From positions 62,001 through 126,000 of the forward strand of contig NZ_JARGZA010000005.1 in assembly GCF_030973515.1 (NCBI RefSeq): 64,000 nt of DNA, written 5' to 3'. Shown piece by piece: positions 5,397-64,000 of the stretch. Each line of letters begins with the position of its first letter. The first letter of the stretch is position 1. Below the pieces are notes generated by a model. It was not told where the DNA came from and ran no database searches. It worked only from the letters and a program-made list of their open reading frames with translations. Both the position numbers and the translations under genes were made by a program. The stretch is from Jannaschia maritima. GTDB taxonomy: Bacteria > Pseudomonadota > Alphaproteobacteria > Rhodobacterales > Rhodobacteraceae.

Positions 5397-5438
5397 GTGC
5401 ACCCCCCGTGCACCCCCCGTACACCCCCCGTGCATACG
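5397..5438. repeat. Repeat leader, locus 1 (three C6 tracts at 11-bp spacing)
   Basis: Forty-two bases made of GTGCA, C6, GTGCA, C6, GTACA, C6 and GTGCATACG. The same layout with the same length occurs at 51573-51614 and 63923-63964. On the minus strand it presents three G6 tracts with 5-base spacers, about 60 bases upstream of the SDR start. Confidence 0.9.
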
Positions 5439-5590
5439 ATCGGCGTACCGGGGGCCGGTTCCATCGTCGCGCGACCGTCACGCTCGGGGGGTGCATCCGA
5501 CGATCCACGCGGGCGGACCGCGCTGCGGACCTCGGGTCGATCCCCCGGATCGACCCGTCCCCCGCGGGACTGGTCCTTCCCCCCGCCATG
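5430..5590. repeat. Diverged single copy of the 165-bp structured repeat unit
   Basis: After the leader, the block at 5517-5583 matches the units at 51.6-52.3 kb, sharing for example GCGCTGCGGACCTCGGG and TGGTCCTTC. It holds a perfect hairpin with arms GGGTCGATCC (5534-5543) and GGATCGACCC (5547-5556) around CCC, in the position where the array units have arms GGGACGGTCC and GGACCGTCCC. Together with the leader it fills most of the 347-base gap between the divergent SDR and ptsP genes. Nothing else was seen there apart from a possible TATACC -10 element near 5647. Confidence 0.8.
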
Positions 5591-5682
5591 CGACCGGTCG
5601 CCGCCGATCGGTGCCGCCGCCCGTTCCCCCCGCCCGGGCGATCGCCTATACCGGCGCCCGAACGAGGGGACGACCGACCGCC

Positions 5683-7920
5683 ATGCCCGCCCGCAAGGAA
5701 ACCGAGAGCCGCAAGCTGCTCCGGCGGCTCCAGGCCGTCATGGCGGAAGATTGCCGCGGGCAGGAGCGGCTGGACCGCATCACTGCGATGGTCGCTGATT
5801 CCATGGGCACGGACGTCTGCTCGATCTACCTGCACCGCGATGCGGACACATTGGAGCTGTGTGCCACGCGGGGCCTGAACGCGGATGCCGTGCATGTCAC
5901 CCGCATGCGCATCGGCGAAGGGCTGGTGGGTCGCGTCGCGCGCCGGCGGGCGGCGATCAACACGGCCGACGCGCCGGGGACGCGGGGCTTCCGCTACATG
6001 CCCGAAACCGGCGAGGAGGTGTTCAGCAGCTTCCTGGGCGTGCCCGTACAGCGGGTGGGCGAGCGGCTGGGCGTGCTGGTCGTGCAGTCGAAGTCGGCGC
6101 GCACCTATTCGGACGACGAGGTCTATGCCCTGGAGGTCGTCGCCATGGTGCTGGCCGAGATGGCGGAGCTGGGCGCCTTCACCGGCGAAGGGGAGGCCCT
6201 GCGCGCCCCGCACGCGTCCCAGGTCCTGTTCCGGGGCGTCACCGGCCAGGAGGGCGCAGCGGCGGGCGTGGTCCACCTGCACGACCCGCGCGTGGTCATC
6301 ACCAAGCCCATCAGCGACGACCCGGAATCGGAGAACACCCGCCTGCTCGACGCCATCGAGAAGCTGCGCCTGTCGGTCGATTCGATGCTCGACGCGGCCC
6401 AGGCCGACCGCGCGCAGGCGGAGGTGATCGAGGCGTACCGGATGTTCGCCTATTCCCGGTCGTGGCTGCGACGGATGGAGGCCAGCATCGATGCCGGCCT
6501 GTCCGCGGAGGCCGCCGTCGAAAAGGAGCAGACAGCCGCGCGCACCCGGATGGAGCAGGCGGGCGACGCGTATCTGCGCGACCGCCTGGCCGACCTGGAC
6601 GACCTGTCGCACCGCCTGCTGCGGATGCTGACGGGCCAGGGGCGCGGGGGCACGCCCGTGCCCGACGGCGCGATCCTGGTCGCGCGCAACCTGGGCCCCG
6701 GCGAGCTTCTGGAATACGGCGCCAAGAAGCTGCGCGGCGTCGTGCTGGAGGAGGGGTCGGTCGGAAGCCACGCCGCCATCGTGGCGCGCGCCTGGGCGAT
6801 CCCCCTGGTGATCCAGGCGCGCGGCATCCTGCAGGAGGCCCTGTCGGGCGATCCGATCCTCGTGGACGGGGACCAGGGAGTCGTCCACTTGCGGCCTGAC
6901 GACATGGTCCGCGCCGCCTTCGACGACAAGCTGGCGATGGCCGCGGACGCGCAGCAGCGATACGCCGCGATCCGCGACACGCCCTGCGTCACCCGCGACG
7001 GGCAGCGGGTCGAGCTGCTGATGAACGCGGGGCTGATGGCCGACCTGCCGTCGCTGCCGTCGTCGGGCGCCGAAGGCGTGGGCCTGTTCCGCACCGAGTT
7101 GCAGTTCCTCGTGCGCAACCACGTGCCCCGGCGCGGCGATCTGGCGTCGCTCTATGCCCGCGTGATGGACGCGGCGGGGGGCAAGCCGGTCACGTTCCGC
7201 ACGCTCGACATCGGGTCGGACAAGGTCCTGCCCTACATGAAGGCCGCCGACGAGCCGAACCCCGCGCTGGGTTGGCGCGCGATCCGCGTGGGCCTGGACA
7301 AGCGCGGCGTGATGCGGATGCAACTGCAGGCGCTGATCCGCGCGGCCAACGGCCGGCCCCTGCGCGTCATGTTCCCCTTCGTCGCCCAGATGGAGGAGTT
7401 TCTGGAGGCCCGCGCCCACCTGACCCGCGAGCTGCATCGCGAACGGTCGCTGGACCACCCCCTGCCCGCGTCGCTGCAGGTGGGATCGATGATCGAGACG
7501 CCGTCGATGGCCTTCGCGCCGCGGCGGTTCTTCCAGGAAGCGGACTTCATTTCGATCGGTGGCAACGACCTGAAGCAGTTCTTCTTCGCCGCCGACCGCG
7601 AGAACGAGCGCGTGCGGAGACGCTACGACACGTTGAACGTCAGCTTCCTGTCCATCGTGGAGCAGATCGTCGCGCGCTGCGACGAGGTCGGAACGCCGGT
7701 CAGCTTCTGCGGCGAGGATGCCGGCCGCCCGGTGGAGGCGCTGTGCTTCGCCGCCATGGGCCTGCGCTGCCTGTCGATGCGCCCCGCCAGCATCGGGCCG
7801 GTGAAGCACATCCTGCTGCGTGCGGATCTGGGCCAGGTGCGGGACGTCATCGCGCGGGCGCGTGAGGCGGGGGAGCAGTCGGTGCGCGAAGCGGTGATGG
7901 CGTATCTGCGGACGCGGTGA
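5683..7920 (+). CDS. ptsP: Phosphoenolpyruvate-protein phosphotransferase PtsP (nitrogen PTS enzyme I)
   Basis: EI-Ntr takes the phosphate of PEP and passes it to the NPr/EIIA-Ntr regulatory relay. The 745-residue protein has an N-terminal GAF sensor domain (about 1-170), the phospho-histidine domain with VGSHAAIVARA (His near residue 363) and the PEP-binding barrel with NPALGWRAIRVGL, GSMIETPSMAFAPRR, GGNDLKQFFFAADREN and the catalytic cysteine in SFCGEDAGRP (near 677). I chose the ATG at 5683, preceded by GAGGGG, because the longer frame enters the repeat. The gene is transcribed away from the SDR across the repeat-filled gap. Confidence 0.95.
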   Translation: MPARKETESRKLLRRLQAVMAEDCRGQERLDRITAMVADSMGTDVCSIYLHRDADTLELCATRGLNADAVHVTRMRIGEGLVGRVARRRAAINTADAPGTRGFRYMPETGEEVFSSFLGVPVQRVGERLGVLVVQSKSARTYSDDEVYALEVVAMVLAEMAELGAFTGEGEALRAPHASQVLFRGVTGQEGAAAGVVHLHDPRVVITKPISDDPESENTRLLDAIEKLRLSVDSMLDAAQADRAQAEVIEAYRMFAYSRSWLRRMEASIDAGLSAEAAVEKEQTAARTRMEQAGDAYLRDRLADLDDLSHRLLRMLTGQGRGGTPVPDGAILVARNLGPGELLEYGAKKLRGVVLEEGSVGSHAAIVARAWAIPLVIQARGILQEALSGDPILVDGDQGVVHLRPDDMVRAAFDDKLAMAADAQQRYAAIRDTPCVTRDGQRVELLMNAGLMADLPSLPSSGAEGVGLFRTELQFLVRNHVPRRGDLASLYARVMDAAGGKPVTFRTLDIGSDKVLPYMKAADEPNPALGWRAIRVGLDKRGVMRMQLQALIRAANGRPLRVMFPFVAQMEEFLEARAHLTRELHRERSLDHPLPASLQVGSMIETPSMAFAPRRFFQEADFISIGGNDLKQFFFAADRENERVRRRYDTLNVSFLSIVEQIVARCDEVGTPVSFCGEDAGRPVEALCFAAMGLRCLSMRPASIGPVKHILLRADLGQVRDVIARAREAGEQSVREAVMAYLRTR

Positions 7921-8057
7921 GGGTGAGGTCGGGAGCGGGGAGGACCGAGGCGAAATCCGCCGTCTCCGCACCATACGGGACGCCGCCGTTGCATTCGCTC
8001 GGGTAAGGGGAAAGGGTGTAACCCGCATTTGAGCGTCCGTATCTTTGCGAGGTCGCA

Positions 8058-8816
8058 ATGACCCTACGATTGTCCAGTGAGTTCTTCCGTGCTGCCGAGC
8101 AAAGAGCGGCCGCCGCGTGGGACCGCGAGGTGGCGATCGAGCTGGTGGCACTCCATCCCCGGCACATGGCTGCACTGGGGGTGTCGGAGGACGAGGTGGT
8201 GGCCTTCGTGCGCGGGGTGCGGGACTATGCGGTCGGCTACGGCGTGACCGGCCGGCGCGAGACCTTCCGCGTCGTCGTCGTGGCCCTGGCCCTTGGCCTC
8301 CACTTCCCGCACGACCCGCGGCTCGCCGATGCCGTTGCCTATGCCTTGGGGCGCAAGGCGATCCCGGAGGCCCGGCGGACCGCGATGCTGGGGGACATGG
8401 CGGAAGCGTGGCTCGGCGCCACGTGGGACGGCCGCGGACTGGCGGAGCGCGGCGCGGCGCTGGTCGATCGGGTGCGCGGGCACGCGCGTGGACCGACGGA
8501 CCGCGACGGCATGTCCGATGCGCTGGGCGGCCTGGTGCCCCAGAGTCCCACGGTCGCCACGCCCGCGCGGCGCAGGGCGTTCCTGGATGCGGTGCTGGCG
8601 CAGGCGGAGGGCTACGGCCTGCGCACCGCGGGGCAGCGGCTGGCCTATGCGGGTGGCGCGCTGCTCCACGGGGTCTATTGGTTCGACGATCCCCTCTTCG
8701 GGCATCTGCGCGGAATGGTGGAGGGTGCCGCCACCCCCGGCGATCTGTGCGATGCGATGGGCGCGTTCTATGCCCGCTTCGGCGACGCGTCGGCGGAGGT
8801 GGCGGATGGATCCTGA
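8058..8816 (+). CDS. Putative helper/adaptor protein of a polymorphic-toxin module
   Basis: A 252-residue soluble alpha-helical protein with no signal peptide. It resembles in general character the accessory proteins encoded ahead of type VI or other secreted effectors, with motifs like HPRHMAALG, FVRGVRDYAVGYGV and LGLHFPHDPRLADAV. The pattern 'GYG..., 25 residues, FxxDPLF/DPRL' occurs twice (about residues 55-95 and 175-215), suggesting an internal duplication. Its end overlaps the effector start by 11 bases, so the two proteins are probably made together. The function as an effector chaperone is inferred only from position and general resemblance. Confidence 0.5.
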   Translation: MTLRLSSEFFRAAEQRAAAAWDREVAIELVALHPRHMAALGVSEDEVVAFVRGVRDYAVGYGVTGRRETFRVVVVALALGLHFPHDPRLADAVAYALGRKAIPEARRTAMLGDMAEAWLGATWDGRGLAERGAALVDRVRGHARGPTDRDGMSDALGGLVPQSPTVATPARRRAFLDAVLAQAEGYGLRTAGQRLAYAGGALLHGVYWFDDPLFGHLRGMVEGAATPGDLCDAMGAFYARFGDASAEVADGS

Positions 8817-10323
8817 CGATCCCCGCGGCCCGGGTCGGGTCGCTGCGGGCTTCGCCGCCGCCGACCGGCAGCCCTCGGGCGCGGTGGGTCAGGTCTGCGA
8901 GACCTGCCCCGACAACTGGGTCGAGGCGGGCGCGCGCGACGAGCAGACCGGCGAGCCGCTTACGGGCCTGGGCTACCGCGTCTACGACCTGTCGTCGGGC
9001 GATCGGGTGGCGCAGGGGGTCCTGGACGACCGGGGAGAGGGTCCGCGTCACTGGATCCCCATGGCGAGCCAACAACTCTACGTCGTCTACGGCACCGATG
9101 CGGCCATGGACGAGGCGGAGGGCCGAATCGAGGAGGTCCGCCGCCAGCGCGCGCTGGAGATGAACGCCCGCCCCGACTGGCACGGCATCCCCGCGGGGCT
9201 GGAGGAGGGCGCGTTCCACGACGCCTATGACGCCCAGACCGAACGGAACGGCCGGCGGACCCAGATCAGCCGGGGGTTCCTGACGGGCGCGTATCACGGC
9301 GCGACGCGCATCGGTCATCACCTCGCCTCGCCGCTCGACTGGGATGCGGCGGAGCAAGAATACTATCTCGACGAACGCGCGCGGGCCTGGGACGAGTACC
9401 AGCTCGTCACCGGCGCGCGCGAGGCGTCGCGGTGGGAAAGCTTCTTCGGGGGCAGCGGACAGGGGGCGTCCTTCGGCTTCGGCGACGAGGCGATGGCGGG
9501 CTTCGACGCGATGATCACCTCCCGGACCTACGAGGAAGCGGTCGACGCCCGACGGCAGATCATGGAGGCGCGGCGGATCGCCAACCCCGGCACCTTCATC
9601 GGCGGCGAGGTGGCGGGCGCGATCCCCACGGTCTTCGTGCCGGTGGGCGGTGCCGTGGGCCGCGCCGTGCAGGCGGGCCGTGGCGCGCGCGGCGCGGTGG
9701 CCGCGGGCGCGCGCACCGGGGCGGGCACGGGCGCCCTGATGGGGGCGGGCCAGGACGAGGGCGGGCCGATCGACCGCCTGGACGGCGCCGCCTTGGGGGG
9801 CGTCACGGGCGGCGCGGCGGGCGCGGTCACGGCGGGCGCCGGCGTGCTGGTCGCACGCGGCGTCGCGAAGACGCGGATCTGGGGGCGGTTCAGCCTCAAT
9901 CGTGGAACCGGCCGCCTCCGTCCGCCCGCAAGGGAGCTTCTGGCGAACGAAGGGCGCCTGATCGGAGCGGAGCAGGGCCTGCAATCGCGCACCGCCGGCC
10001 TCTTCGACGACGTCGTACCGGGCACCCACGGGGACGACGCGGCGAAGTACCTTTGGACGATCGACGAACGCGGCATCAACATCGCGTTGGAGCAGACGCC
10101 GTTCCCGACGCCTCGGGGCAACATCGTGCACACCAACCTCAGCAGTCGCGCCTCCATCGGGGGCGAGGCATGGTTCGGGCCGAACAACGCCGTGACGATC
10201 AACGCCGGGTCCGGTCGTTTCGGGGACGGGGCCGGGATCACGGAACGCCAATGGCGGGCCGCGGCGCGATACTGGCGACGCTTGGGATATGACGTCGACG
10301 CAATTCCGTACGGATCGAGGTAG
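8806..10323 (+). CDS. Modular candidate polymorphic-toxin effector
   Basis: A 505-residue protein in three parts. The N-terminal part (about 30-110) contains VCETCPDNWVEAGARDEQTG and a beta-rich segment (LGYRVYDLSSGDRVAQGV). The middle (about 200-355) contains GASFGFGDEAMAGFDAMI and a long Gly/Ala-rich hydrophobic stretch, as in phage-type and effector translocation regions. The last 90 residues (from KYLWTIDERGINIALEQTPF to the end) form a compact domain with NAGSGRFG and a W...W..LGY pattern. The layout of trafficking part, glycine-rich middle and small C-terminal domain, followed directly by a tiny gene, is that of a toxin. The catalytic activity is not recognised. The start at 8806 was chosen over longer frames because they overlap the upstream gene entirely. 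Confidence 0.55.
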   Translation: MDPDDPRGPGRVAAGFAAADRQPSGAVGQVCETCPDNWVEAGARDEQTGEPLTGLGYRVYDLSSGDRVAQGVLDDRGEGPRHWIPMASQQLYVVYGTDAAMDEAEGRIEEVRRQRALEMNARPDWHGIPAGLEEGAFHDAYDAQTERNGRRTQISRGFLTGAYHGATRIGHHLASPLDWDAAEQEYYLDERARAWDEYQLVTGAREASRWESFFGGSGQGASFGFGDEAMAGFDAMITSRTYEEAVDARRQIMEARRIANPGTFIGGEVAGAIPTVFVPVGGAVGRAVQAGRGARGAVAAGARTGAGTGALMGAGQDEGGPIDRLDGAALGGVTGGAAGAVTAGAGVLVARGVAKTRIWGRFSLNRGTGRLRPPARELLANEGRLIGAEQGLQSRTAGLFDDVVPGTHGDDAAKYLWTIDERGINIALEQTPFPTPRGNIVHTNLSSRASIGGEAWFGPNNAVTINAGSGRFGDGAGITERQWRAAARYWRRLGYDVDAIPYGSR

Positions 10324-10325
10324 CG

Positions 10326-10664
10326 ATGAAGTTCTGGCAGTTGGTGTCGTTGCTGAGGGACCGTCGTCCGATCCTCGCCGCGACGTTCGAGGATCCGAGA
10401 TGGCGGGGCTATGGCGCCTGGCTCCGCGACTTCGACGCCATCGTGAACGAACAGGACAGGGCCAAGCTGGACGCGTCGATGCCGGACGATCTGGTCCGGG
10501 CCGCCCTGCGCGAGGCGGGCATCGCCGTGTATCGGTCGGGCCGAACCCTCCGGTCGCGTCGTGCCGCCGAGACGGACCGCGTCGTGCCGGCCGAGGAGGT
10601 GTTCGACAGCTACGGGGGCGACGTCGTGGAGGAGATCTTCGAAAGAGGTTCGGTCCAGGTGTGA
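10326..10664 (+). CDS. Small protein, putative immunity protein
   Basis: A 112-residue, highly charged cytoplasmic protein starting 2 bases after the effector stop. No domain is recognised. Features visible are an N-terminal helix MKFWQLVSLLRDRRPIL, several acidic clusters and a C-terminal EEVFDSYGGDVVEEIFE. Size, position immediately after the effector, lack of a signal peptide and high charge all fit a cognate immunity gene, but this is inferred from context only. Confidence 0.5.
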   Translation: MKFWQLVSLLRDRRPILAATFEDPRWRGYGAWLRDFDAIVNEQDRAKLDASMPDDLVRAALREAGIAVYRSGRTLRSRRAAETDRVVPAEEVFDSYGGDVVEEIFERGSVQV

Positions 10665-11005
10665 CGACGCCCTTCGATCGCCCGGAGGGCTCGGCGGGCG
10701 GTACGACGGGCCTTTCCCGCGGGCGGGGTTCCGCCGTCGCGACGGACCGCGGCGCTGGCCGCGCTCGGGCGGGGGATCGGGCCGAAGCGACCGGGCATCG
10801 CGGCGGAGGTCCCTGCGAGGGTCGCATTCGGGCCATGGGGCCGGACGACCGATCGGGCCCGTCGCGCCTGGACCTGTGACGCCGCATCCGGGCGTGCGCG
10901 GCGCATGCATGCGTGGCGTGCCGCCGGAACCATGCCCGAGGGATCGACGCAACGTTCGCCCGCCGCCTGACGTTCCCTCGGAACGAGGTGGAGGAGGACA
11001 CCGCA
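10665..11005. other. Intergenic region, no gene seen
   Basis: A 341-base gap after the putative immunity gene. I see no convincing coding sequence. A small hairpin (arms CGTTCC 10971-10976 and GGAACG 10980-10985) lies just before the strong ribosome binding site AGGAGG (10992-10997) of the next gene. Confidence 0.5.
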
Positions 11006-12133
11006 ATGGCCGACCCGTCCCTGTCCTTGGGCGTCGAGGAGGAGTACCTGCTCGTCGATCCGGAGACGTTCGACCTGGTGCCCGCGCCGGACGGCCTGTT
11101 CGACGCCTGCGCGGACGCCCTGGGCGACCAGGTCACGCCGGAGTTCCTGCAATGCCAGTTGGAGGTCGGCACCGCCGTCTGCGCGGACGTGGCGGCCGTG
11201 CGCGACGACCTGGCCCGGCTGCGCGGCACGGTGGCGGCGGTGGCCGACCGGTTCGGCGTGGTGCCCATCGCGGCCAGCACGCATCCCTTCGCCGAATGGG
11301 GCCGGCAGGTCTTCACCGACCGCGCCCGCTATCGCGACCTGGAGGCCGACCTGGCGGGCGTGGCGCGGCGGATGCTGATCTGCGGGATGCACGTCCATGT
11401 CGGGGTGGAGGACGAGGATCAGCGGATCGACCTCTTGAATCAGGTGTCGTACTTCCTGCCGCACCTGCTGGCGCTGTCCGCGTCCTCGCCGTTCTGGGAG
11501 GGGACGGAGACGGGGCTGAGCTGCTACCGGTTGACGGTGTTCGACAACATGCCGCGCACGGGCCTGCCGCCGCGCCTGGGCAGCTTCGCCGAGTACCGCC
11601 GGTCGGTGGACACCTTCGTGCGCTGCGGCGTAATGGAGGATGCGACCAAGCTGTGGTGGGATCTGCGCCCCAGCGACAAGTACCCGACCCTGGAGGCGCG
11701 GATCTGCGACGTGGTCCCCCGGATCGACGACGCGGTGGCCATCGTCGCGGTGATCCAGTCGCTGTTCGCGATGCTGCACGACCTGCACCAGCGCAACCAA
11801 CGGTGGCGGATCTACGACCGGTTCCTGATCGACGAGAACCGATGGCGGGCGCAGCGCTATGGGGTCGAGGGGACGATGATCGACTTCGGCCGGGGCGAGT
11901 CGGCCCCGTTCGGCGCCCTGATGGAGGAATTGGTCGATCTGCTCCGCCCCCATGCGGATGCCCTGGGCTGCCTGCCGGAGGTCGAGCGTGCGCTAGGCAT
12001 CGCGCGGGACGGGTCCAGCGCGACCCGGCAAGTGGCGGCCTATCGCGCCGCGATGGACGGCGGCGCGGACGAGGGCGCGGCGTTGCGGGCGGTGGTGCGC
12101 GATCTGGCGGCGGAGTTCACCGAAGGCGTGTGA
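11006..12133 (+). CDS. Carboxylate-amine ligase, glutamate-cysteine ligase type 2 family (YbdK-like)
   Basis: An ATP-dependent enzyme of the GCS2 family that joins a carboxylate to an amine; the YbdK branch has weak glutamate-cysteine ligase activity and an uncertain physiological substrate. The 375 residues match the family. SLGVEEEYLLVD (residues 7-18) is the diagnostic N-terminal motif, and ICGMHVHVGVED and LEARICDVVPRIDDAVA are conserved blocks. AGGAGG eight bases before the ATG at 11006 supports the start. It is a single-gene unit that converges on the SMP-30 gene. Confidence 0.88.
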   Translation: MADPSLSLGVEEEYLLVDPETFDLVPAPDGLFDACADALGDQVTPEFLQCQLEVGTAVCADVAAVRDDLARLRGTVAAVADRFGVVPIAASTHPFAEWGRQVFTDRARYRDLEADLAGVARRMLICGMHVHVGVEDEDQRIDLLNQVSYFLPHLLALSASSPFWEGTETGLSCYRLTVFDNMPRTGLPPRLGSFAEYRRSVDTFVRCGVMEDATKLWWDLRPSDKYPTLEARICDVVPRIDDAVAIVAVIQSLFAMLHDLHQRNQRWRIYDRFLIDENRWRAQRYGVEGTMIDFGRGESAPFGALMEELVDLLRPHADALGCLPEVERALGIARDGSSATRQVAAYRAAMDGGADEGAALRAVVRDLAAEFTEGV

Positions 12134-12158
12134 CGCCCCCGCACGGATGCGGAGGCGT
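12133..12158. terminator. Bidirectional terminator-like hairpin between convergent genes
   Basis: Arms ACGCCCCCGCA (12133-12143) and TGCGGAGGCGT (12148-12158) pair with one mismatch around CGGA. It fills the 32-base gap between the two convergent stop codons. Confidence 0.6.
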
Positions 12159-12165
12159 CGGACCG

Positions 12166-55940: not shown

Positions 55941-55963
55941 CCCCTTGGATCACGACCGCGCGG

Positions 55964-56938: not shown

Positions 56939-56960
56939 GGATATACCCTCATGACGTCGG

Positions 56961-56984
56961 ATTGGTTAACGCCGGTTAACCAAT
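56961..56984. promoter_or_regulatory. Perfect palindromic operator upstream of the vWA gene
   Basis: Arms ATTGGTTAAC (56961-56970) and GTTAACCAAT (56975-56984) are separated by GCCG. This 24-base AT-rich inverted repeat lies 23 bases before the start codon and covers a possible -10 element (TATTGG, minus strand, 56980-56985). A -35 of TTGACC sits at 57002-57007 with 16 bases between. The layout suits repression by a dimeric regulator. Confidence 0.65.
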
Positions 56985-57067
56985 ACATGGGGTTTACGGT
57001 CGGTCAAGTCGGGTAGTCCGCACTTGACGCCCCTCGCGATCGCGCCATGGCCGCGTCCCCCGTGCCG

Positions 57068-57436
57068 TCAGCCCGCCAGCATGGGCCCCAGCGGCCGCCC
57101 CGCGACCAGGTGGACGTGGAAGTGCGGCACCTCCTGCCCGGCATGGCCGCCCGCGTTCGCGATCGCGCGGAACCCTTCGCCCGCCGCGAGGCCGCGTTCG
57201 TCGCAGATGCGCGCCACGGCGCGGGCGAAGTCCACGATCTCGGCCTCCGACGCTTGCGCGCAGAAGTGGTCGTAGGTGACGTACGGGCCCTTGGGGATCA
57301 CCAGGACGTGGACGGGGGCCTGGGGAGTGATGTCGTCGAAGGCGAGCGTGTGCTCCGTTTCCAGGACGGTGGCGTTGGGGATCTCGCCGCGCAGGATGCG
57401 GGCGAAGACGTTCGTGTCGTCGTAGGGGTGAGTCAT
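57068..57436 (-). CDS. HIT family protein
   Basis: A 122-residue histidine-triad nucleotide-binding protein (HINT/PKCI branch): FARILRGEIPNATVLETEHT and the triad HFHVHL at 105-110. It hydrolyses nucleoside phosphoramidates or dinucleotides. It stands alone; the minus-strand vWA gene starts 129 bases downstream of its stop. Confidence 0.93.
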   Translation of the reverse strand: MTHPYDDTNVFARILRGEIPNATVLETEHTLAFDDITPQAPVHVLVIPKGPYVTYDHFCAQASEAEIVDFARAVARICDERGLAAGEGFRAIANAGGHAGQEVPHFHVHLVAGRPLGPMLAG

Positions 57437-57526
57437 GGCGCGTTCCGATTTGGCGGGCGGGTGGGGATGGCGGCGACGATCCCGCCTGCCGCCCGCGATG
57501 GCAAGGGCCGGGGCGCGCGCCGCCGG

Positions 57527-58516
57527 TCAGTGCCCCTGGGGGATCACCAGGTCGGGCGGGCGGTGGCCGTCGGCGAAGGTGCGCATGTTGAGGATCGCGC
57601 GCTCCCCCATCTCCAACCGCGCCTCGTGGGTGGCGGAGGCGGTGTGGGGCGTCAGCACAACGTTGGGCAGGGCGCGCAGGCGGGGGTTCAGGCCGCGCCC
57701 GCGCTCATAGACGTCGAGCCCCGCGCCCGCCAGCTCGCCCGCGCGCAGCATGCGCGTCAGCGCGTTCTCGTCCACGACCTCGCCGCGCGAGGTGTTCACC
57801 ACGACGGCGTGCGGTTGCATCAGGTGCAGGCGGCGGGCGTTCATCAGGTGGAACGTCGCGGGCGTGTGGGGGCAGTTGATCGACAGGACGTCCACGCGCG
57901 CGACCATGCGGTCGAGGCTGTCCCAGTGCGTCGCCTCCAACGGCGCTTCCAGGCCCGGATGCAGGCGGCGGCGGTTGTGGTAGTGGATCTGCATGCCGAA
58001 GGCGCGTGCGCGGGCGGCCACGGCCTGCCCGATCCGGCCCATGCCCAGGACGCCCAGGCGCAGGCCTCGCAGGCGGCGGCCCAGCAGGGCCTGCGGCGCC
58101 CAGCCGGCCCAGGTCCCCTCGTCGCGCATCAGGGCCATGCCCTCCGGCATCCGGCGCAGCACGGCCAGCATCAGCGCCAGGGTCATGTCGGCGGTGTCGT
58201 CCGTGGTGGCGCCCGGCGTGTTGGACACCAGGACGCCGCATAGGCGCGCGGCGCCCACGTCGATGTGGTCCACGCCCGCGCCGTAATTGGCGATCAGCTT
58301 CAACCGGTCGCCCGCCTGCCCCAGCAGCGGCGCGTCGATCACGTCGGTCAGGGTGGGCACCAGGATGTCGGCGCTGCGCATGGCATCGGCCAGGGCATCG
58401 CGCGACAGCGGCGCGTCGTCGTCGCGCAGACGGGCGTCGAACAACTCGGCCATCCGGGTTTCGACCGCGTCGGGCAGGCGTCGCGTCAGGACAACACTGA
58501 GCCGCTGCTTCGTCAT
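57527..58516 (-). CDS. D-isomer-specific 2-hydroxyacid dehydrogenase (glyoxylate/hydroxypyruvate reductase-like)
   Basis: A 329-residue NAD(P)H-dependent enzyme. The cofactor motif GVLGMGRIGQAVAARARAFG (near 155), the catalytic arginine in NTSRGEVVDENAL, the glutamate in LDVYERG and the histidine in VVLTPHTASAT are all present. IANYGAGVDHIDV is the substrate loop shared by the GhrB/GyaR branch, so glyoxylate or hydroxypyruvate is the likely substrate. Divergent from the SH3 gene (78-base gap). Confidence 0.92.
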   Translation of the reverse strand: MTKQRLSVVLTRRLPDAVETRMAELFDARLRDDDAPLSRDALADAMRSADILVPTLTDVIDAPLLGQAGDRLKLIANYGAGVDHIDVGAARLCGVLVSNTPGATTDDTADMTLALMLAVLRRMPEGMALMRDEGTWAGWAPQALLGRRLRGLRLGVLGMGRIGQAVAARARAFGMQIHYHNRRRLHPGLEAPLEATHWDSLDRMVARVDVLSINCPHTPATFHLMNARRLHLMQPHAVVVNTSRGEVVDENALTRMLRAGELAGAGLDVYERGRGLNPRLRALPNVVLTPHTASATHEARLEMGERAILNMRTFADGHRPPDLVIPQGH

Positions 58517-58594
58517 GCCCGACCCTTCCCCCGCTTCCGGCCCGGGCACGACCATGACAGGTTGATGCGGGCGCACAAGTAGGGGTTCGGGCAC

Positions 58595-59092
58595 ATGATC
58601 GGCGGCAGGTTCATCGGCGCGATGCTGGCCCTCCTGCTGCCCGCGATGGCCTGGGCGGAGGCGCGGGGGCCGCAGACCGGCCTGCCGCTGCCGCGCTACG
58701 TCACGATGAAGGCGCAGGAAGGCTATGCCCGGCGCGGGCCTGCGCGCGACCAGAAGATCGACTGGGTGTTCGTGCGGCGCGGCATGCCGCTGCGGATCAC
58801 GGGCGAGTGGGGCCATTGGCGGCGGGTCGAGGACCGCGACGGCATGGGCGGATGGATGCACCATTCGCTTCTGTCGGGCCGGCGCGCGGTGCTCGTGGAC
58901 GTGGACGAGCTGGCCCTGCGGCGGCGGCCCGACGCGGCGGCGCCCGTGACCGCCCGGCTGGCGCGCGGCGTGGTGGCGCGCCTGGGCGACTGCGCGGACG
59001 GATGGTGCGCGCTGGAACTGGACGCCGCGAAGGGATGGGCCCCCACCGCCGCCCTGTGGGGCGTGGCGGTGGACGAGGTGCGCGCGGACTAG
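58595..59092 (+). CDS. Exported SH3-domain protein
   Basis: A 165-residue protein with a signal peptide (cleavage after AWA, about 21) and two bacterial SH3 repeats: LPLPRYVTMKAQEGYARRGP with WVFVRRGMPLRITGEWGHWR, then VLVDVDELALRRRPDAAAPV with RLGDCADGWCALEL. Such domains bind peptidoglycan. The TAG stop shares CTAG with the convergent soxR. Confidence 0.85.
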   Translation: MIGGRFIGAMLALLLPAMAWAEARGPQTGLPLPRYVTMKAQEGYARRGPARDQKIDWVFVRRGMPLRITGEWGHWRRVEDRDGMGGWMHHSLLSGRRAVLVDVDELALRRRPDAAAPVTARLARGVVARLGDCADGWCALELDAAKGWAPTAALWGVAVDEVRAD

Positions 59093-59529
59093 GGCGCGCG
59101 TTCGACGAGCCGCGCGCCGGGGCCGTCCGCGCCCAGCGCGTCGCCGTCGTTGTAGAGTGGGCAGTTGACCATCGACAGGCAACCGCAGCCGATGCAGCCT
59201 GCGAGGTTGTCGCGAAGCTTCGTCAGCACCTCGATCCGATCGGTCAACTCGGCGCGCATGCCGGTCGCCACGCGGTCCCAATCGGCCTGTGTCATGGGCC
59301 GCTCGCCGGGTGGGCCCAACGCCGCGCGGATGCGGCCCAGCGACAGGCCCAGGCGCTGCGCGATGCGGATGAACGACAGGCGGCGCAGGTCGGCGCGGGG
59401 AAAGCGCCGGTGCCCGCCCCGGTCGCGGGGCGGCGCGATCAGGCCCTTCTTCTCGTAGAAGCGGATCTGACTGATCGACATTCCCGTGCGCTGCGCGACC
59501 TGCCCGATCGCGATCTCCTTCGGCAGCAT
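59089..59529 (-). CDS. soxR: Redox-sensitive transcriptional activator SoxR
   Basis: A 146-residue MerR-family regulator with an oxidation-sensing [2Fe-2S] cluster. The N-terminal winged helix (EIAIGQVAQRTGMSISQIRF) is followed by a dimerisation helix and the SoxR-specific cluster motif CIGCGCLSMVNC (Cys112, 115, 117 and 123). It is divergent from the VOC gene, with the operator between them; both probably respond to redox-active compounds. Confidence 0.96.
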   Translation of the reverse strand: MLPKEIAIGQVAQRTGMSISQIRFYEKKGLIAPPRDRGGHRRFPRADLRRLSFIRIAQRLGLSLGRIRAALGPPGERPMTQADWDRVATGMRAELTDRIEVLTKLRDNLAGCIGCGCLSMVNCPLYNDGDALGADGPGARLVERAP

Positions 59530-59541
59530 CGGATTTCCCCC

Positions 59542-59572
59542 TTGACCTGAACCATGGTCGAGGTCGGATCAG
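59542..59572 (+). promoter_or_regulatory. SoxR-type operator and promoter for the VOC gene
   Basis: TTGACC (59542-59547) and GATCAG (59567-59572) are 19 bases apart, the long spacer typical of MerR-family promoters. The imperfect palindrome at 59544-59565 (outer arms GACCT and AGGTC, inner ACCATGGT) matches 9 of 11 paired positions. It lies 29 bases before the VOC ATG, just outside soxR. Confidence 0.7.
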
Positions 59573-59600
59573 GACCGGGTCAACGTCAAGGAGAATCGCG

Positions 59601-59990
59601 ATGACCCGCCTGGAACACCTGAACGTCACCGTCCCCAACGCGGACGCCACCGCCGCGACCCTGTGCGACCTGTTCGGCTGGCGGGTCCGCTGGTCCGGCA
59701 CGGTGCTGGAAGGGGCGGGCCGGTCCGTCCACGTGGGCGAGGCGAGCAACGGCGGGACGTATCTCGCGCTCTATTCGCCGAAGGACGGAACGGCGGCGGC
59801 GCCGGACAGCTATGCGACCGCGCGGGGACTGAACCACGTGGCGCTGATCGTGGACGACCTGGATGCGATGGACGCGAAGGTCCGGGCGGCGGGCTACGTG
59901 CCCGGCAGCCACGCGGCGTACGAGCCCGGGCGGCGGTTCTACTTCGACGGCCCCGACGGGATCGAGTTCGAGCTGGTGAGCTACGGCTGA
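59601..59990 (+). CDS. VOC family (glyoxalase/dioxygenase-like) protein
   Basis: A 129-residue protein of the vicinal-oxygen-chelate fold: MTRLEHLNVTVPNADATAAT starts strand one, with a metal histidine; GLNHVALIVDDLDAMDAKV and FYFDGPDGIEFELVSYG supply the other ligands. AAGGAG lies 8 bases before the ATG. Being the divergent target of soxR, it probably detoxifies a redox-cycling or electrophilic compound. Overlaps the convergent phosphatase by 10 bases. Confidence 0.88.
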   Translation: MTRLEHLNVTVPNADATAATLCDLFGWRVRWSGTVLEGAGRSVHVGEASNGGTYLALYSPKDGTAAAPDSYATARGLNHVALIVDDLDAMDAKVRAAGYVPGSHAAYEPGRRFYFDGPDGIEFELVSYG

Positions 59991-60817
59991 TTCAGCGCGG
60001 CGGCGAAGTCGGGGGCGAGTTCGTCCCAGATGGCGGGGGTGCGGGCGGTCAGAAGGCGCCCCTCGGTCATGGTGGGGGCGTACTCGGTCCCGTCCAGGAG
60101 GCGGGCGACGCCCCCGGCCTCGCGGATGGCCAGAACGCCCGCCGCATGGTCCCAGGGGTGCAGGAAGGCGTTCAGCACGAAGTCGGACCCGCCCAGGCAC
60201 ATCAGGCGGTATTCGTGCAGCGACGCGCCCAAGCTGCCCGACCGCCGGATCGTCGGCGTCAACGCGGCCAAGCCGGCGCGCAAGACCTGGGGATACATGT
60301 ATTCGCCGATGTTGCCGCGCAGGCGGTCGCGGGGCGTGGCGTCCCGCGACATCGACAGCGTGCGCGCGGTGCCGTTCCGGTGGAACGTCGTGCCGCCGTC
60401 CGCGACGGCCAGGACCCAGTCGTCGAAGCCCGGATCGTAGAGGCAGCCCCAGACCGTCCGCCCGTCCTCCACCACCGCGACGATGACGCCGTAATTCGCG
60501 ATCCCGTGCGCGAAGTTCCACGTCCCGTCGATCGGGTCGATGATCGTGCAGCGCCCTTCGCCGATCCGCGACAGGATGGACGCGTCGGCGGCGACCGATT
60601 CCTCGCCCACCACGGCGTCGCCGGGCAGGATGGCGTGGAACCGCTCCGTCAGCGCCGCTTCCGCTTCCTTGTCGGCCACGGTCACGAGGTCGTCGAAGGA
60701 CGACTTCGCGTCGATGGCGCCGGGCGGCAGGTTCCGGAAGCGCGGCAGGATCACGGCGGCGGCCACCTCGCGGATGGCGGCGATCATCGCATTGGATTGG
60801 GCATGGGTCAGGGGCAT
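59981..60817 (-). CDS. Inositol monophosphatase family protein (possibly histidinol-phosphatase)
   Basis: A 278-residue Mg2+/Li+-sensitive phosphatase. The metal-binding blocks are VVGEESVAAD, CTIIDPIDGTWNFAHG (two Asp ligands and the catalytic Thr) and FLHPWDHAAGVLAIREAGG. Homologues in actinobacteria and rhizobia act in histidine synthesis or on inositol phosphates; the substrate here is open. The start at 60817 gives the family length. Confidence 0.87.
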   Translation of the reverse strand: MPLTHAQSNAMIAAIREVAAAVILPRFRNLPPGAIDAKSSFDDLVTVADKEAEAALTERFHAILPGDAVVGEESVAADASILSRIGEGRCTIIDPIDGTWNFAHGIANYGVIVAVVEDGRTVWGCLYDPGFDDWVLAVADGGTTFHRNGTARTLSMSRDATPRDRLRGNIGEYMYPQVLRAGLAALTPTIRRSGSLGASLHEYRLMCLGGSDFVLNAFLHPWDHAAGVLAIREAGGVARLLDGTEYAPTMTEGRLLTARTPAIWDELAPDFAAALNQP

Positions 60818-60871
60818 GGCGGCGGGATGACCCGGAGCGGGGGACGGGTCAAGCGCGACGATGCTCGCGAC

Positions 60872-60901
60872 GGGGGGCCCAGGGACGTGGTGCGGCCCCC
60901 C
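60872..60901 (-). terminator. Hairpin downstream of the peptidase gene
   Basis: Arms GGGGGGCC (60872-60879) and GGCCCCCC (60894-60901) with a 14-base loop. It lies 24 bases past the stop of the minus-strand peptidase gene. Confidence 0.5.
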
Positions 60902-60924
60902 GCGCCAGGCGGGAACGCGGTCGT

Positions 60925-62940
60925 TCAGGCGGCGGCGTCCAGCCCCCTGCCCTTCAACAGCGGGCCCACGTCGGGCATGCGGCCCCGGAAGCGCAGGTAG
61001 AGGTCGTCGGCCGGCTCCGATCCGCCCCGGGACAGGATGTCCGCTTCGAGCTTCTTCGCCAGGTCGGGGTCGAAGGGATCGCCCGCTTCCTCGAACGCGT
61101 CGAAGGCGTCGGCGTCCATGACCTCGGACCACATGTAGCTGTAGTACCCCGCCGAATACCCGTCGCCCGCGAAGACATGGGCGAAGTGCGGCGTGGCATG
61201 GCGCATGGCTATGGCGCGCGGCATCTCGATCGCTTCCAGCACCTCGGCCTGCTTCTGCATGGGATCGGCGGGCGCCGGACCGTCGTGGAAGGCCAGGTCG
61301 ACCAGGGCGGAGGCCACGTATTCCACCGTCTGGAACCCCATGTCGTAGGTCGCGGCCCCCAGGACGCGGTCCAGAAGGTCCTGGGGCATGGGCTCGCCCT
61401 CGGCGTTCGTGGCGAACTCCGCCAGCACGGCGGGTACGTCCAGCCAGTGTTCATAGAGCTGGGAGGGCAGTTCCACGAAGTCGCGCGCCACGCTGGTTCC
61501 GCTGACCAGGGGATAGGTCACGTCCGACAGCATCTGGTGCAGGGCGTGGCCGAACTCGTGGAAGAGCGTGCGCGCGTCGTCGTAGGACAGGAGCGCCGGC
61601 TCGCCCTTGGCGAAGTTGCAGACGTTGACGACGATCGGGCGGATGTCGCCCGCGAGCTTCTGCTGGGACCGCATGGCGCTGCACCATGCGCCCGACCGCT
61701 TGGACGAACGCGCGAAGTAGTCGCCCAGGAACACCGCCACGTGCCGCCCGTCGCGCGTCACCTCCCATGCGCGGACGTCCTCGTGATAGAGCGGCACGTC
61801 GAGTGGCGCGAAGTCCAGCCCGAACAGGCGGTTGGCGACGGCGAAGGCGGCTTCGACCATGCGGTCCAGGCGCAGGTAGGGCTTGACCGCCGCCTCGTCC
61901 AAGTCGTGCAGATCCCGGCGGCGGCGTTCGCTGTAGTAACGCCAGTCCCAAGGTTCCAGCGGTCCCACGATGCCATCGGCGCGGGCCAGTTCGGCCAGCG
62001 CCTCGCCGTCGGCCAGCGCGGCACGGCGGGCGGGCTGCCAGACCTGCATCAGCAGGTCGCGCACGGCGCCCGGCGTGCGGGCCATCTGGGTTTCCAGCTT
62101 GTAGTCGGCGAAGCTGTCGTAGCCCAGGAGCTTGGCGCGTTCCTCGCGCAGGGCCAGGATCTCGGCGGCCAGGCGACGGTTGTCGGTCTCGCCCCCGTTC
62201 GCGCCCCGCGACGTCCACGCCTCGAACGCGCGGCGGCGCAGGTCGCGGTCGGGATGGTTCGCCAGGAACGGGGTGATGTGGCTGCGGTTCAACGTCACCA
62301 CGGCGCCGGGGCGGTCGCGGTCGCGCCCCGCCCGGCGCAGCGCGTCGGCCGCGCTGGGTGGCAGGGCCGCGACCTGTTCGTCGGTCAGGTCCATGTACCA
62401 GTCGCGCTCGTCCGCCAGCAGGTTCTGGGTGAACTGCGTTCCCAGCACGGCCAGACGCGCCTTGATCTCGGTCAGACGTTCCGCTTCGGCCCCCTTCAGG
62501 GCGGCGCCCGCACGGACGAAGTTGCGATGCGTCAGATGCAGCACGCGGGCCTGTTCGGGCGTCAGGTCCAGGCTGTCGCGGCGGTCGTGCAGGTCGTCGA
62601 TGCGCGCGAACAGGGCGGCATCGTTGACGATCTCGGAGGAATAGGCGGACAGCTTCGGCGCCATGTCGCGTTGCAGCGCGTTGCGCGCGTCGTTCGCGTC
62701 GGCGCCGGTCAGGTTGTAGAACACGCCGGCGACCCGGTTCAGGTCCGCATCCGCCAGTTCCAGCGCGTCGATCGTATTCTCGAAGGTCGGCGGTTCCGCG
62801 TCGCCCGAGATGGCGCGGATGGCGGCGCGGCCACGGTCCATCGCCGCGTCGAAGGCGGGGGCGAAATGCGCGTCCTCGATCGCGTCGAAGGGCGGCAGGG
62901 CGTGGGGGCCAGTCCAGTCGGACAGCAGCGGGTTGGTCAT
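60925..62940 (-). CDS. M3 family metallopeptidase (peptidyl-dipeptidase Dcp / oligopeptidase A)
   Basis: A 671-residue cytoplasmic zinc peptidase that degrades short peptides. The zinc site is FHEFGHALHQ (near residue 460), and the third ligand glutamate lies in VELPSQLYEHWL about 25 residues later. The N-terminal helical domain (ENTIDALELADADLNRVAGV) and DYYFARSS-like channel residues are present. Length and motifs fit Dcp; whether it prefers dipeptide release cannot be told. Confidence 0.93.
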   Translation of the reverse strand: MTNPLLSDWTGPHALPPFDAIEDAHFAPAFDAAMDRGRAAIRAISGDAEPPTFENTIDALELADADLNRVAGVFYNLTGADANDARNALQRDMAPKLSAYSSEIVNDAALFARIDDLHDRRDSLDLTPEQARVLHLTHRNFVRAGAALKGAEAERLTEIKARLAVLGTQFTQNLLADERDWYMDLTDEQVAALPPSAADALRRAGRDRDRPGAVVTLNRSHITPFLANHPDRDLRRRAFEAWTSRGANGGETDNRRLAAEILALREERAKLLGYDSFADYKLETQMARTPGAVRDLLMQVWQPARRAALADGEALAELARADGIVGPLEPWDWRYYSERRRRDLHDLDEAAVKPYLRLDRMVEAAFAVANRLFGLDFAPLDVPLYHEDVRAWEVTRDGRHVAVFLGDYFARSSKRSGAWCSAMRSQQKLAGDIRPIVVNVCNFAKGEPALLSYDDARTLFHEFGHALHQMLSDVTYPLVSGTSVARDFVELPSQLYEHWLDVPAVLAEFATNAEGEPMPQDLLDRVLGAATYDMGFQTVEYVASALVDLAFHDGPAPADPMQKQAEVLEAIEMPRAIAMRHATPHFAHVFAGDGYSAGYYSYMWSEVMDADAFDAFEEAGDPFDPDLAKKLEADILSRGGSEPADDLYLRFRGRMPDVGPLLKGRGLDAAA

Positions 62941-62995
62941 GGTCGTCTCCTCGGGCTCCCCCGGAGGTAGGGGGCCCGAGGGGGCGTCGCCAGGG

Positions 62996-63514
62996 TCAGG
63001 TCGTCGTCCGCGTCACCGTGGTGCCGCCGCCCATGCGGCTGACGACGCCGTCGCGCTTGATCGCGTGCCACATGGCGCCCGCCACGTGCAGCACGGCCAG
63101 GCCCAGAACGACATAGGCCGCGATCCCGTGGACCTGCCCCAGCCAACCGGCCTTGACCCACAGGGCGGCCATGCCGAACAGCGGCATCGCGATCAGAAGC
63201 CCGTAGAACGCGAAATGCGTGGCGCGCGACAGGATCTGGATGGGTTTGGGTTCGTTGTCGGGGGGCGGCGGCGCGCCGTGCTTCAAGCGCAGGTACAGGC
63301 GGACCAGCATGGCGATGAGGATGCAGGTGCCGATGATCCCGTGGACGTAGAGGACCCCGTCCATGGGCAGGACCCCGTATTCCACCCCATACAGGTACGC
63401 CTGCTCCATCCGGCCGCCGGTGGCATACTGGAACAGGACCAGGAAGACGACCGTCCAGTGCATGGCGATATGGCGGACGTGATAGGCGCCGACGGGGCGG
63501 GCGGCTTGGGCCAT
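62996..63514 (-). CDS. Cytochrome b561-type membrane protein
   Basis: A 172-residue four-helix membrane protein of the prokaryotic cytochrome b561 family. Haem-ligand histidines are visible in YHVRHIAMHWTVVFLVLFQY, VLYVHGIIGTCILIAMLVRL, RATHFAFYGLLIAMPLFGMA and LGLAVLHVAGAMWHAIKR. It transfers electrons between quinol and a periplasmic partner. The start MAQAARPVGAY was chosen because a longer upstream frame is proline-rich and not family-like. Confidence 0.9.
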   Translation of the reverse strand: MAQAARPVGAYHVRHIAMHWTVVFLVLFQYATGGRMEQAYLYGVEYGVLPMDGVLYVHGIIGTCILIAMLVRLYLRLKHGAPPPPDNEPKPIQILSRATHFAFYGLLIAMPLFGMAALWVKAGWLGQVHGIAAYVVLGLAVLHVAGAMWHAIKRDGVVSRMGGGTTVTRTTT

Positions 63515-63654
63515 GGCGGGAACCTCAGGGAGCAAAGGGGTATCGTGGGTCGCAACGCCGCCCGGCGGGCGCGTGTTCCCCGAGACCGGGGGGAACCGGG
63601 GGGCGGGGGGACCGGTTGTCGCAGTGTGAACCGTCCCCAACCGGAGAGACCACG

Positions 63655-63792
63655 ATGACCCGTTTCCTTAAGATCGCCGCCCTGCTGGCCCTGCCCTTCG
63701 CCGTGTCCGGCTGCGCCGCCGCCGCCCTGGGCGCGGGCGGGGCCATCGCCGCCGACGAGTTGGCGGAGAACGAAGGCGGGAACCTGTTCTGA
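63655..63792 (+). CDS. Small lipoprotein (entericidin-like), first of two
   Basis: A 45-residue protein starting MTRFLKIAALLALPFAVSGC, with lipobox VSGC (Cys20) and a short Ala/Gly-rich mature part ending DELAENEGGNLF. CCGGAGAGA lies just before the ATG. The next lipoprotein starts at its stop (TGATG). Such twin tiny lipoproteins resemble entericidin A/B, where one counteracts the other, but a bacteriolytic role is not shown here. Confidence 0.7.
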   Translation: MTRFLKIAALLALPFAVSGCAAAALGAGGAIAADELAENEGGNLF

Positions 63793-63911
63793 TGGCACGC
63801 TTTTTCCTGATCCTGACGCTGCTCGGCGGGCTGTCCGCCTGCGGCACGGTGGGCGGCTTCGTGGACGACAGCGAGGCCGTGGGCGACGCGGTCAGCGACG
63901 CCCTGGACTGA
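63792..63911 (+). CDS. Small lipoprotein (entericidin-like), second of two
   Basis: A 39-residue protein: MARFFLILTLLGGLSACGTV with lipobox LSAC (Cys17), then a short acidic tail (GGFVDDSEAVGDAVSDALD). It is coupled to the first by TGATG. The stop is followed after 11 bases by the third repeat leader. Confidence 0.68.
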   Translation: MARFFLILTLLGGLSACGTVGGFVDDSEAVGDAVSDALD

Positions 63912-63922
63912 TAATTGTTGTC

Positions 63923-64000
63923 GTACACCCCCCGTACACCCCCTGTGCACCCCCCGTACATACGCGGGGGCACACCGGGGCTCGGGGGGAAAGGACCGCT
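63923..64000. repeat. Repeat leader, locus 3 (element runs off the window)
   Basis: Forty-two bases at 63923-63964: GTACA, C6, GTACA, C5T, GTGCA, C6 and GTACATACG. The element continues to the right edge with C- and G-rich text, so a unit may lie beyond the window. One C-to-T change breaks the second tract. Confidence 0.85.

What the first reader, a model, noticed from the sequence alone, without database searches (positions are those of the whole stretch)
5397..64000. A dispersed repeat family with a 42-bp leader of three C6 tracts
At 5397-5438, 51573-51614 and 63923-63964 the same leader occurs: three C6 tracts at 11-base spacing joined by RTRCA, closed by GTRCATACG, each exactly 42 bases long. 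An 11-base period is about one turn of the helix, and the other strand carries three G6 tracts that could form a G-quadruplex-like fold. All three copies have the same orientation and lie in intergenic DNA. I know of no named family of this form.
Basis: partly seen in the sequence, partly recalled or inferred. Interest (0 to 1): 0.85.

Follow-up and report, generated by a model that had tools for sequence, protein, structure and literature searches.

The report
Dispersed arrays starting skewed chromosome domains
Short triple-repeat DNA signposts, scattered by the dozen over some marine bacterial chromosomes, on average mark the start of a roughly 18-kilobase one-directional stretch of lopsided base composition, and related species often write the signpost in a different code at the same spot, which points to an unknown machine that works along the DNA from these sites.

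Summary
In detail: three 42-bp arrays, same strand, intergenic. It is not the leader of a mobile repeat. The own genome (genus Jannaschia) has 66 copies; seven of 20 genus genomes (own included), Nioella and scattered Rhodobacteraceae have it. Arrays persist at the same gap and orientation between species whose intergenic flanks no longer align. Other congeners carry a different 11-bp triple repeat, GGGTGATCYRC x3 (dialect 2); 12 of 30 tested loci sit at the place of a dialect-1 array elsewhere.

Unexpected: on average arrays mark the left edge of a GC-skew domain, starting about 2 kb left and running about 18 kb right. It holds at four-fold sites of genes on both strands, leaves TA skew unchanged and is several times the replichore effect. 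Dialect 2 shows the same short-range profile. An own-species 165-bp repeat occurs only right of arrays. A G-quadruplex is not supported.

Best reading: a loading site for a directional DNA-processing (recombination or transfer) machine, not identified. Against: one array-free genome still has skew domains, single arrays vary, and at the array-2 gene the link is mixed.

The parts
5397..5438 (+). array 1: three 11-bp units plus terminal half unit GTGCATACG (5430-5438)
51573..51614 (+). array 2; dialect-1 array at the same place in G007 and G015; dialect-2 array there in G001, G003, G004, G005, G016 (pattern hits) and degenerate, by eye, in G010 and G012
63923..63964 (+). array 3 (middle tract CCCCCT); G007 has an array in the same neighbourhood, with one gene placed differently
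5439..22000 (+). positive GC-skew stretch right of array 1 (2-kb bins left of the array -0.10 to -0.03; right +0.01 to +0.10 to about 22 kb)
46000..64000 (+). positive-skew stretch holding arrays 2 and 3; it starts about 5 kb left of array 2, further than average
51615..52395 (+). species-specific 165-bp body in about four tandem copies, directly right of array 2
5439..5600 (+). sequence right of array 1 that resembles the body (hairpin motif at 5519; that short motif is not specific to arrays)
50353..51558 (-). tetrapyrrole methylase gene (PF00590), start codon 14 bp left of array 2
4592..5335 (-). SDR oxidoreductase gene left of array 1
5683..7920 (+). GAF + PEP-utilising enzyme gene (PtsP-like) right of array 1

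Best explanation
SHOWN: the array (three 11-bp direct repeats, one unit per helical turn, plus a terminal half unit) is an oriented chromosomal signal whose place is conserved between species. On average it marks the left edge of a domain of about 18 kb in which G is favoured over C on the array strand, whatever the direction of genes or of the replication fork. Its repeat sequence has dialects that can occupy the same place in different species. INFERRED: a dialect-specific DNA-binding protein occupies the repeats side by side on one face of the helix and loads a machine that processes DNA in one direction for up to about 18-20 kb. The most likely process is strand exchange or gene conversion in which the invading or imported strand always has the same polarity. 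C:C mismatches, which mismatch repair largely ignores while repairing G:G (recalled), would then fix C on that strand and G on the other, giving C/G asymmetry without T/A asymmetry, and one-sided sharing of sequence between arrays. Whether the DNA comes from another cell (transfer signal) or from a sister chromosome (repair hotspot) is not decided; the first two rivals are special cases of this reading.
For: 66 arrays in the own genome, none for the reversed pattern. G000 against the 41 G007 arrays: the script called 18 same-place pairs; about 10-12 survive inspection (best neighbour 70-91% identical, same orientation), with intergenic flanks that by eye do not align. Skew, up to 215 of 221 arrays pooled: about 0 from -7 to -2 kb, 0.09 in the last 0.5 kb left, 0.046-0.079 to +6.5 kb, n falling to 15. 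Four-fold sites: +0.02 beyond -3 kb against +0.17/+0.20 in the first kb right for + and - genes; no TA shift. G007: 36 of 41 arrays positive at 0-2 kb; residual 0.18 at the array, 0.11 at 14-16, 0.07 at 16-18, -0.01 at 18-20, 0.05 at 20-22 kb. Inside domains 0.12-0.17 with the fork, -0.133 and +0.050 head-on, against 0.03 outside. Dialect 2: same profile within 1.5 kb, 30 loci; 12 of the 30 (10 distinct loci) at the place of a dialect-1 array. Array genomes 0.052 against G002 orthologous places 0.016, 27 positions, Wilcoxon p 0.0014. Body core at 18 places, all 18 (13 arrays) just right of an array. Right flanks shared among arrays, left flanks hardly: G000 533 against 11 pairs, G007 54 against 0. 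Right-hand gene points at the array in 131 of 213.
Against: G002 has skew domains but no 11-bp triple array in the 400 kb read, and some skew at orthologous places. At the array-2 gene the link is mixed: strong skew in G007, G005, G012, G001, G015 with an array, but also in G013 and G018 without one; weak in G003, G004, G010, G016, which have a dialect-2 array there; own genome (-0.19) no stronger than array-less G002 (-0.17) and G009 (-0.18). Some arrays show little or no skew (G007 382201, partly 1546225), and single domains end anywhere from 17.5 to 36 kb by the cumulative measure (17 arrays), so the 18-kb edge is a property of the average. Selection on codons could in principle make C/G asymmetry. 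Between-species identity rises only slightly right of -1.5 kb, about two standard errors, with pairs in both directions. In G007 part of the shared right flank is a generic repeat (54 pairs fall to 8 without it). No trans-acting protein was identified.
Confidence: 0.47

Rival explanations
1. Special case of the best reading: packaging-start (pac-like) sites for the Rhodobacterales gene transfer agent (GTA) or a related particle. Terminase starts at the array and fills about four successive 4-4.5 kb heads to the right; recipients recombine the fragment with fixed polarity.
For: One-directional domain of about 18 kb on average. GTA packaging start sites are an open question, and D. shibae particles show discrete over-represented regions (review PMC11841831, passages). 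GTA clusters lie in GC-skew peaks (PMC9836097). A GTA-like TerL is present in the own genome and in all 20 genus genomes.
Against: TerL is also present in genomes without either dialect, so it does not discriminate; in G010 (18 dialect-2 matches) TerL matches in two pieces and in G012 it has one TGA. The putative own TerS has no Pfam hit, and GTA TerS proteins are reported to lack a DNA-binding domain. The review describes GTA peaks as symmetrical, not one-sided.
Confidence: 0.17
2. Special case of the best reading: an orientation-dependent recombination/repair hotspot acting like a rare, long Chi site inside one cell.
For: Left edge near the array, long right side, C/G-only asymmetry, largely independent of fork direction; right-only occurrence of the body and right-biased sharing.
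Against: 41-66 copies per genome are very few for general break repair; dialect 1 and dialect 2 have opposite G-rich strands (read); a tandem-repeat array is unlike any Chi known to me (recalled).
Confidence: 0.17
3. Operator of a nucleoid-organising or regulatory DNA-binding protein (like SlmA/Noc/MatP sites or a PhoB-type box); the skew arises indirectly.
For: 11-bp helical-phase direct repeats of a 7+4 type; intergenic; spacing on the G007 contig more even than random (CV 0.70 against 0.97, P 0.008); conserved positions.
Against: No preference for divergent promoters: convergent gaps 56, divergent 32 of 213. Such sites are not known to me to set a one-sided strand asymmetry over many kilobases.
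Confidence: 0.22
4. Auxiliary one-directional replication start: the array strand is leading-like because forks sometimes start there.
For: G excess is leading-strand-like and starts near the array; iteron-like repeats beside an A-rich patch.
Against: The average domain fades near 18-20 kb instead of running on; the effect is several times the replichore effect.
Confidence: 0.07
5. Mobile or REP-like repeat, or a folded G-rich element.
For: Multi-copy; the body has strong inverted repeats.
Against: Orthologous positions, partly with a dialect swap; no body core found away from arrays; first tract dispensable outside the own species. Empty sites with target duplications were not searched for.
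Confidence: 0.04

Closest known systems
GC-skew peaks of Rhodobacterales (Koppenhofer et al. 2022, PMC9836097)
   Same: same order, G-over-C codon preference, deamination judged a small or no cause, peaks hold core and GTA genes
   Different: described there as codon preference, with no sequence signal in the parts I read; here domains have a start point and a direction
DNA uptake sequences (DUS/USS) and their dialects (recalled)
   Same: many dispersed copies, not tied to one kind of neighbouring gene, clade dialects
   Different: 40-bp triple array, dozens not thousands of copies, one-sided footprint; no link to competence tested
Chi sites of RecBCD/AddAB (recalled)
   Same: orientation-dependent, acts to one side over kilobases
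   Different: Chi is a short single motif, about a thousand copies per genome; here 41-66 long arrays
GTA/phage packaging starts (PMC11841831, PMC6854486, passages)
   Same: one directional process from a chromosomal point would fit headful packaging
   Different: no motif known; TerL present in array-less genomes; reported GTA peaks symmetrical
PhoB-type boxes and the triple 11-bp repeats of the pMV158 origin (recalled)
   Same: head-to-tail 11-bp direct repeats, one per helical turn
   Different: dispersed chromosomal sites, no promoter bias; no plasmid record matched array 2 at E 0.1
SlmA/Noc/matS/KOPS chromosome-organising sites (recalled)
   Same: tens of dispersed sites, fairly even spacing
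   Different: those are short or palindromic; these are followed by a strand-composition domain largely regardless of replichore

Membership tests
DNA uptake sequence | hundreds to thousands of copies | tested here: not met
   66 in G000, 41 in G007
DNA uptake sequence | bound by a competence pilin, raises uptake | not testable with these tools
   needs experiment
Chi site | short single motif, very frequent | tested here: not met
   about 40 bp, dozens of copies
Chi site | one-sided action | tested here: inconclusive
   one-sided skew and mostly one-sided sequence sharing; action itself not measured
GTA packaging start | presence tracks GTA genes | tested here: inconclusive
   TerL in 20 of 20 genus genomes; dialect 1 in 7, dialect 2 in 10 (three of them a single match)
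GTA packaging start | enriched at the start of packaged fragments | not testable with these tools
   no particle reads available
Transcription-factor operator (PhoB type) | located in promoters of a regulon | tested here: not met
   tandem 125, convergent 56, divergent 32 of 213 arrays with genes called on both sides
G-quadruplex element | conserved G tracts | tested here: not met
   first tract CCCC in 56 of 66 own arrays but 21 of 95 named loci; dialect 2 has no G6 tract
Mobile repeat (REP/MITE) | insertion at new sites with a defined unit | tested here: inconclusive
   about 10-12 positions shared by G000 and G007, 12 of 30 across dialects; empty sites with target duplications not searched
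Known structured RNA | Rfam match | tested here: not met
   0 matches in the window at gathering score

The most novel reading that the evidence does not exclude
A previously undescribed system in which dialect-coded triple-repeat arrays are start sites for directional DNA exchange between cells or chromosomes. Each array opens a recombination domain of about 18 kb, the recognition code is swapped between species at fixed chromosomal addresses, and the system, more than replication, has written the local strand asymmetry over roughly a quarter (G007) to a third (own genome) of the chromosome, taking 18 kb per array.
Probability: 0.35. Interest if true: 0.95.

Novelty: categorically new. Interest (0 to 1): 0.85.

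Why it matters
GC skew is normally read as a replication signature. Here a short cis element is followed by a skew domain stronger than the replication effect, with a start and a direction. Rhodobacterales GC-skew peaks, with their core and GTA genes, and the unknown start sites of GTA packaging are open in print (PMC9836097, PMC11841831, parts read); the arrays give coordinates at which both can be tested. Two repeat dialects at the same places in different species suggest a DNA-binding protein whose specificity changes while its chromosomal addresses stay.

Tried and rejected
Rejected or disfavoured: quadruplex function; leader of a mobile family; assembly artefact; promoter operator (gene-orientation counts); simple replichore polarity (28 of 41 G007 arrays point with the fork, counted by hand, parS taken as the origin and ter assumed opposite; effects separated); cytosine deamination (no TA shift at four-fold sites). 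GTA TerL as a discriminating partner: present in 20 of 20.

Led nowhere: plasmid and phage records (no match to array 2); one viral contig hit, L291, not examined; text search for the motif: 24 papers, the 20 listed look unrelated by title; the gene tree of the methylase was too weak to say how often dialects switched; dialect 2 outside the genus, no match in 394 family genomes; Rfam none. No structure prediction was run. Whole proteomes were not available, so no search for the trans-acting protein was made. Searches for a prior description.

My first gene caller was contaminated by shadow ORFs; conclusions on gene strand rest on the remade caller. In the pooled sets seven arrays of J. helgolandensis and J. 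pohangensis are counted twice (100% identical loci). One search used 72 of 95 named arrays. On re-checking I lowered the best explanation from 0.50 to 0.47 because dialect-2 carriers show weak skew at the array-2 gene.
Full report
OBSERVATION. The three 42-bp arrays are in the window at the stated coordinates. The three-tract pattern, 2 mismatches allowed, occurs three times against 0.18 expected, and none of 100 shuffles gives three. The unit is RTRCACCCCCC three times, then GTRCATACG. Copy 3 has CCCCCT in the middle tract.

COPY NUMBER AND SPREAD. The window lies in a 3.67-Mb draft genome (45 contigs, 99.98% complete). The two-unit pattern occurs at 90 overlapping places there, none for the reversed control. 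I collected 66 distinct arrays with up to 3 mismatches. Seven of 20 genus genomes, own included, have the array, G007 with 41 on one 3.25-Mb contig (merged). Of 394 sampled family genomes nine, own included, have a match, G221 with 75 places and G389 with 18. No plasmid or phage record matches array 2.

ANATOMY ACROSS GENERA. The constant part is GTRCACC at 11-bp spacing. The inner spacers are CCCC or CCCT in the loci found by pattern; the spacer of the first unit varies (CCCC 56 of 66 in the own genome; GGGC 22, CCCC 21, CCCT 17 of 95 in named loci; CCCC 27 of 60 in G001/G005/G007). The end is GTRCAKAC. An A-rich patch lies just left (A in 36 of 65 at position -7 in the own genome). Three full G6/C6 tracts are therefore not required.

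POSITION IS CONSERVED. Comparing flanks by tblastn, the script called 18 G000-G007 pairs in the same place and orientation. After inspection I accept about 10-12 (best neighbour 70-91% identical); the rest are low-identity, paralogous matches. In these, and in pairs between Jannaschia and Cypionkella or Nioella, the array stays while by eye the intergenic flanks do not align; between close Nioella species flanks do align. Two of the three window arrays have counterparts in G007: array 2 in the same gap, array 3 in the same neighbourhood with a VOC gene placed differently.

NOT A PROMOTER SIGN. With a six-frame coding model (87% coding in the window), 213 of 221 arrays have genes called on both sides: tandem 125, convergent 56, divergent 32. 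The right-hand gene points at the array in 131, the left-hand gene in 106.

THE SKEW DOMAIN. Oriented by the C-tract strand, pooled GC skew over up to 215 of 221 arrays is near 0 from -7 to -2 kb, rises to 0.09 just left of the array and stays at 0.046-0.079 out to +6.5 kb, where n has fallen to 15; raw TA skew is 0.01-0.03 near arrays. Each of the four genome sets shows it. Seven arrays are counted twice in these pools. At four-fold sites the skew is +0.019/+0.023 beyond -3 kb (+/- genes) and +0.165/+0.201 in the first kb right; TA skew follows gene strand. On the G007 contig the residual four-fold skew is 0.04 at -4 to -2 kb, 0.15 at -2 to 0, 0.18 at 0-2, 0.15 at 8-10, 0.11 at 14-16, 0.07 at 16-18, -0.01 at 18-20 and 0.05 at 20-22 kb. 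This edge is a feature of the average: single arrays reach their cumulative maximum between 17.5 and 36 kb (17 arrays) and a few show little skew. In the window, 2-kb bins are -0.10 to -0.03 left of array 1 and +0.01 to +0.10 to about 22 kb; left of array 2 the skew is already positive for about 5 kb.

NOT REPLICATION. With parS-like sites marking the origin and ter assumed opposite, skew outside domains is +0.032/-0.030 by replichore, but +0.120 and -0.171 in co-directional domains, and -0.133 and +0.050 in head-on ones, the last from 8 blocks.

DIALECTS. At the array-2 locus several congeners carry another 11-bp triple repeat, GGGTGATCYRC x3 + GTCNGAC, at the same spot: five by pattern, G010 and G012 degenerate by eye. 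A pattern search finds 1-24 such arrays in 10 of 20 genomes (a single match in G007, G015 and G018); G001 and G005 carry both dialects. Thirty dialect-2 loci, read to 1.5 kb each side, show 0.024, 0.048, 0.097 approaching from the left and 0.076, 0.061, 0.053 to the right. Twelve of the 30 (10 distinct loci, one resting on a 116-bit match) lie at the place and orientation of a dialect-1 array in another species. No match in the 394 family genomes sampled.

THE ARRAY-2 GENE IN 20 SPECIES. Coding four-fold skew of the methylase gene (array on the opposite strand, so negative is expected): with an array, G007 -0.38, G005 -0.34, G012 -0.42, G001 -0.28, G015 -0.27, G000 -0.19, but G003 +0.06, G004 -0.08, G010 -0.12, G016 -0.13. 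Without one: G008, G011, G017, G019, G006 -0.06 to +0.01, G014 -0.09, G002 -0.17, G009 -0.18, and G013 -0.43, G018 -0.40 (for G014 the upstream region was not read). One gene is noisy, but this is mixed evidence.

CONTROL GENOME. In 400 kb of G007 a blind search for 11-bp triple tandems returns seven hits, all arrays (seven of the eight known there); periods 10, 12 and 13 return none. In 400 kb of G002, which has neither dialect, it returns none at 10, 11 or 13 and one at 12, and k-mer statistics show no array-like motif. G002 still has local skew domains. At 27 positions orthologous to arrays, the array genomes average 0.052 and G002 0.016 (Wilcoxon p 0.0014); for arrays known at one locus only 0.056 against 0.009 (19 positions), for arrays shared by several loci 0.040 against 0.032 (8). 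This fits skew following arrays and fading after loss, but does not exclude that arrays settle in older skew domains.

ONE-SIDED SEQUENCE SHARING. The body motif follows 28 of 66 own arrays on the right and none on the left; 0 of 60 in G001/G005/G007 and 1 of 95 in named loci. A shorter hairpin motif raises this to 34, but it also matches in the window away from arrays. Genome-wide the body core (up to 3 mismatches) occurs at 18 places, all 18, at 13 arrays, within 600 bases right of an array. Right flanks (400 bp) match among arrays in 533 pairs in G000 against 11 left; G007 54 against 0; N. sediminis 11 against 0; four other sets 1-3 against 0; N. nitratireducens 0 and 0 (72 of 95 named arrays used). 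In G007 a generic CCGAGGTATTT repeat sits right of 12 and left of 1 of 41 arrays; without such flanks 8 right pairs and 0 left remain. Interspecies identity is only marginally higher right of -1.5 kb.

INTERPRETATION. The facts call for an oriented process that starts near the array, reaches about 18 kb on average, treats C and G differently and largely ignores gene and fork direction. Strand exchange with fixed strand polarity plus poor repair of C:C mismatches explains the C/G-only effect; this step is inference from recalled repair biochemistry. GTA packaging is attractive because its start sites are unknown and GTA and core genes lie in GC-skew peaks. But TerL is in all 20 genus genomes, in two pieces in G010, and the adjacent putative TerS has no recognised domain (reported lack of a DNA-binding domain).

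LITERATURE SEEN. PMC9836097: outline with abstract, two sections, passages. PMC11841831, PMC7947584, PMC6854486, PMC12946183: passages only. Tomasch 2018: not held. None of the passages read, nor the listings, mentions such arrays; this is a limited search.

Noticed in passing
L251-L270 (G007) and L343-L362 (G002): A second dispersed intergenic repeat around CCCCGAGGTATTT(C) gives the top intergenic k-mers in both 400-kb stretches; in G007 it lies right of 12 arrays and left of 1 within 400 bp.
   Followed up: partly
L382 (G010) and L368 (G012): The GTA-like TerL matches as two pieces in G010 and has one TGA inside in G012.
   Followed up: no
L291: One IMG/VR contig (79 kb) carries an array; not examined for whether it is viral or host DNA.
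   Followed up: no
G000:C18:14, G221:C7:5, L111:5, L170:17, G015:C81:5: Several assemblies break at or next to an array, so draft genomes may undercount arrays.
   Followed up: no
L303 (G013) and L308 (G018): Strong four-fold skew in the methylase gene although no array was seen upstream of it; perhaps another array or dialect nearby.
   Followed up: no
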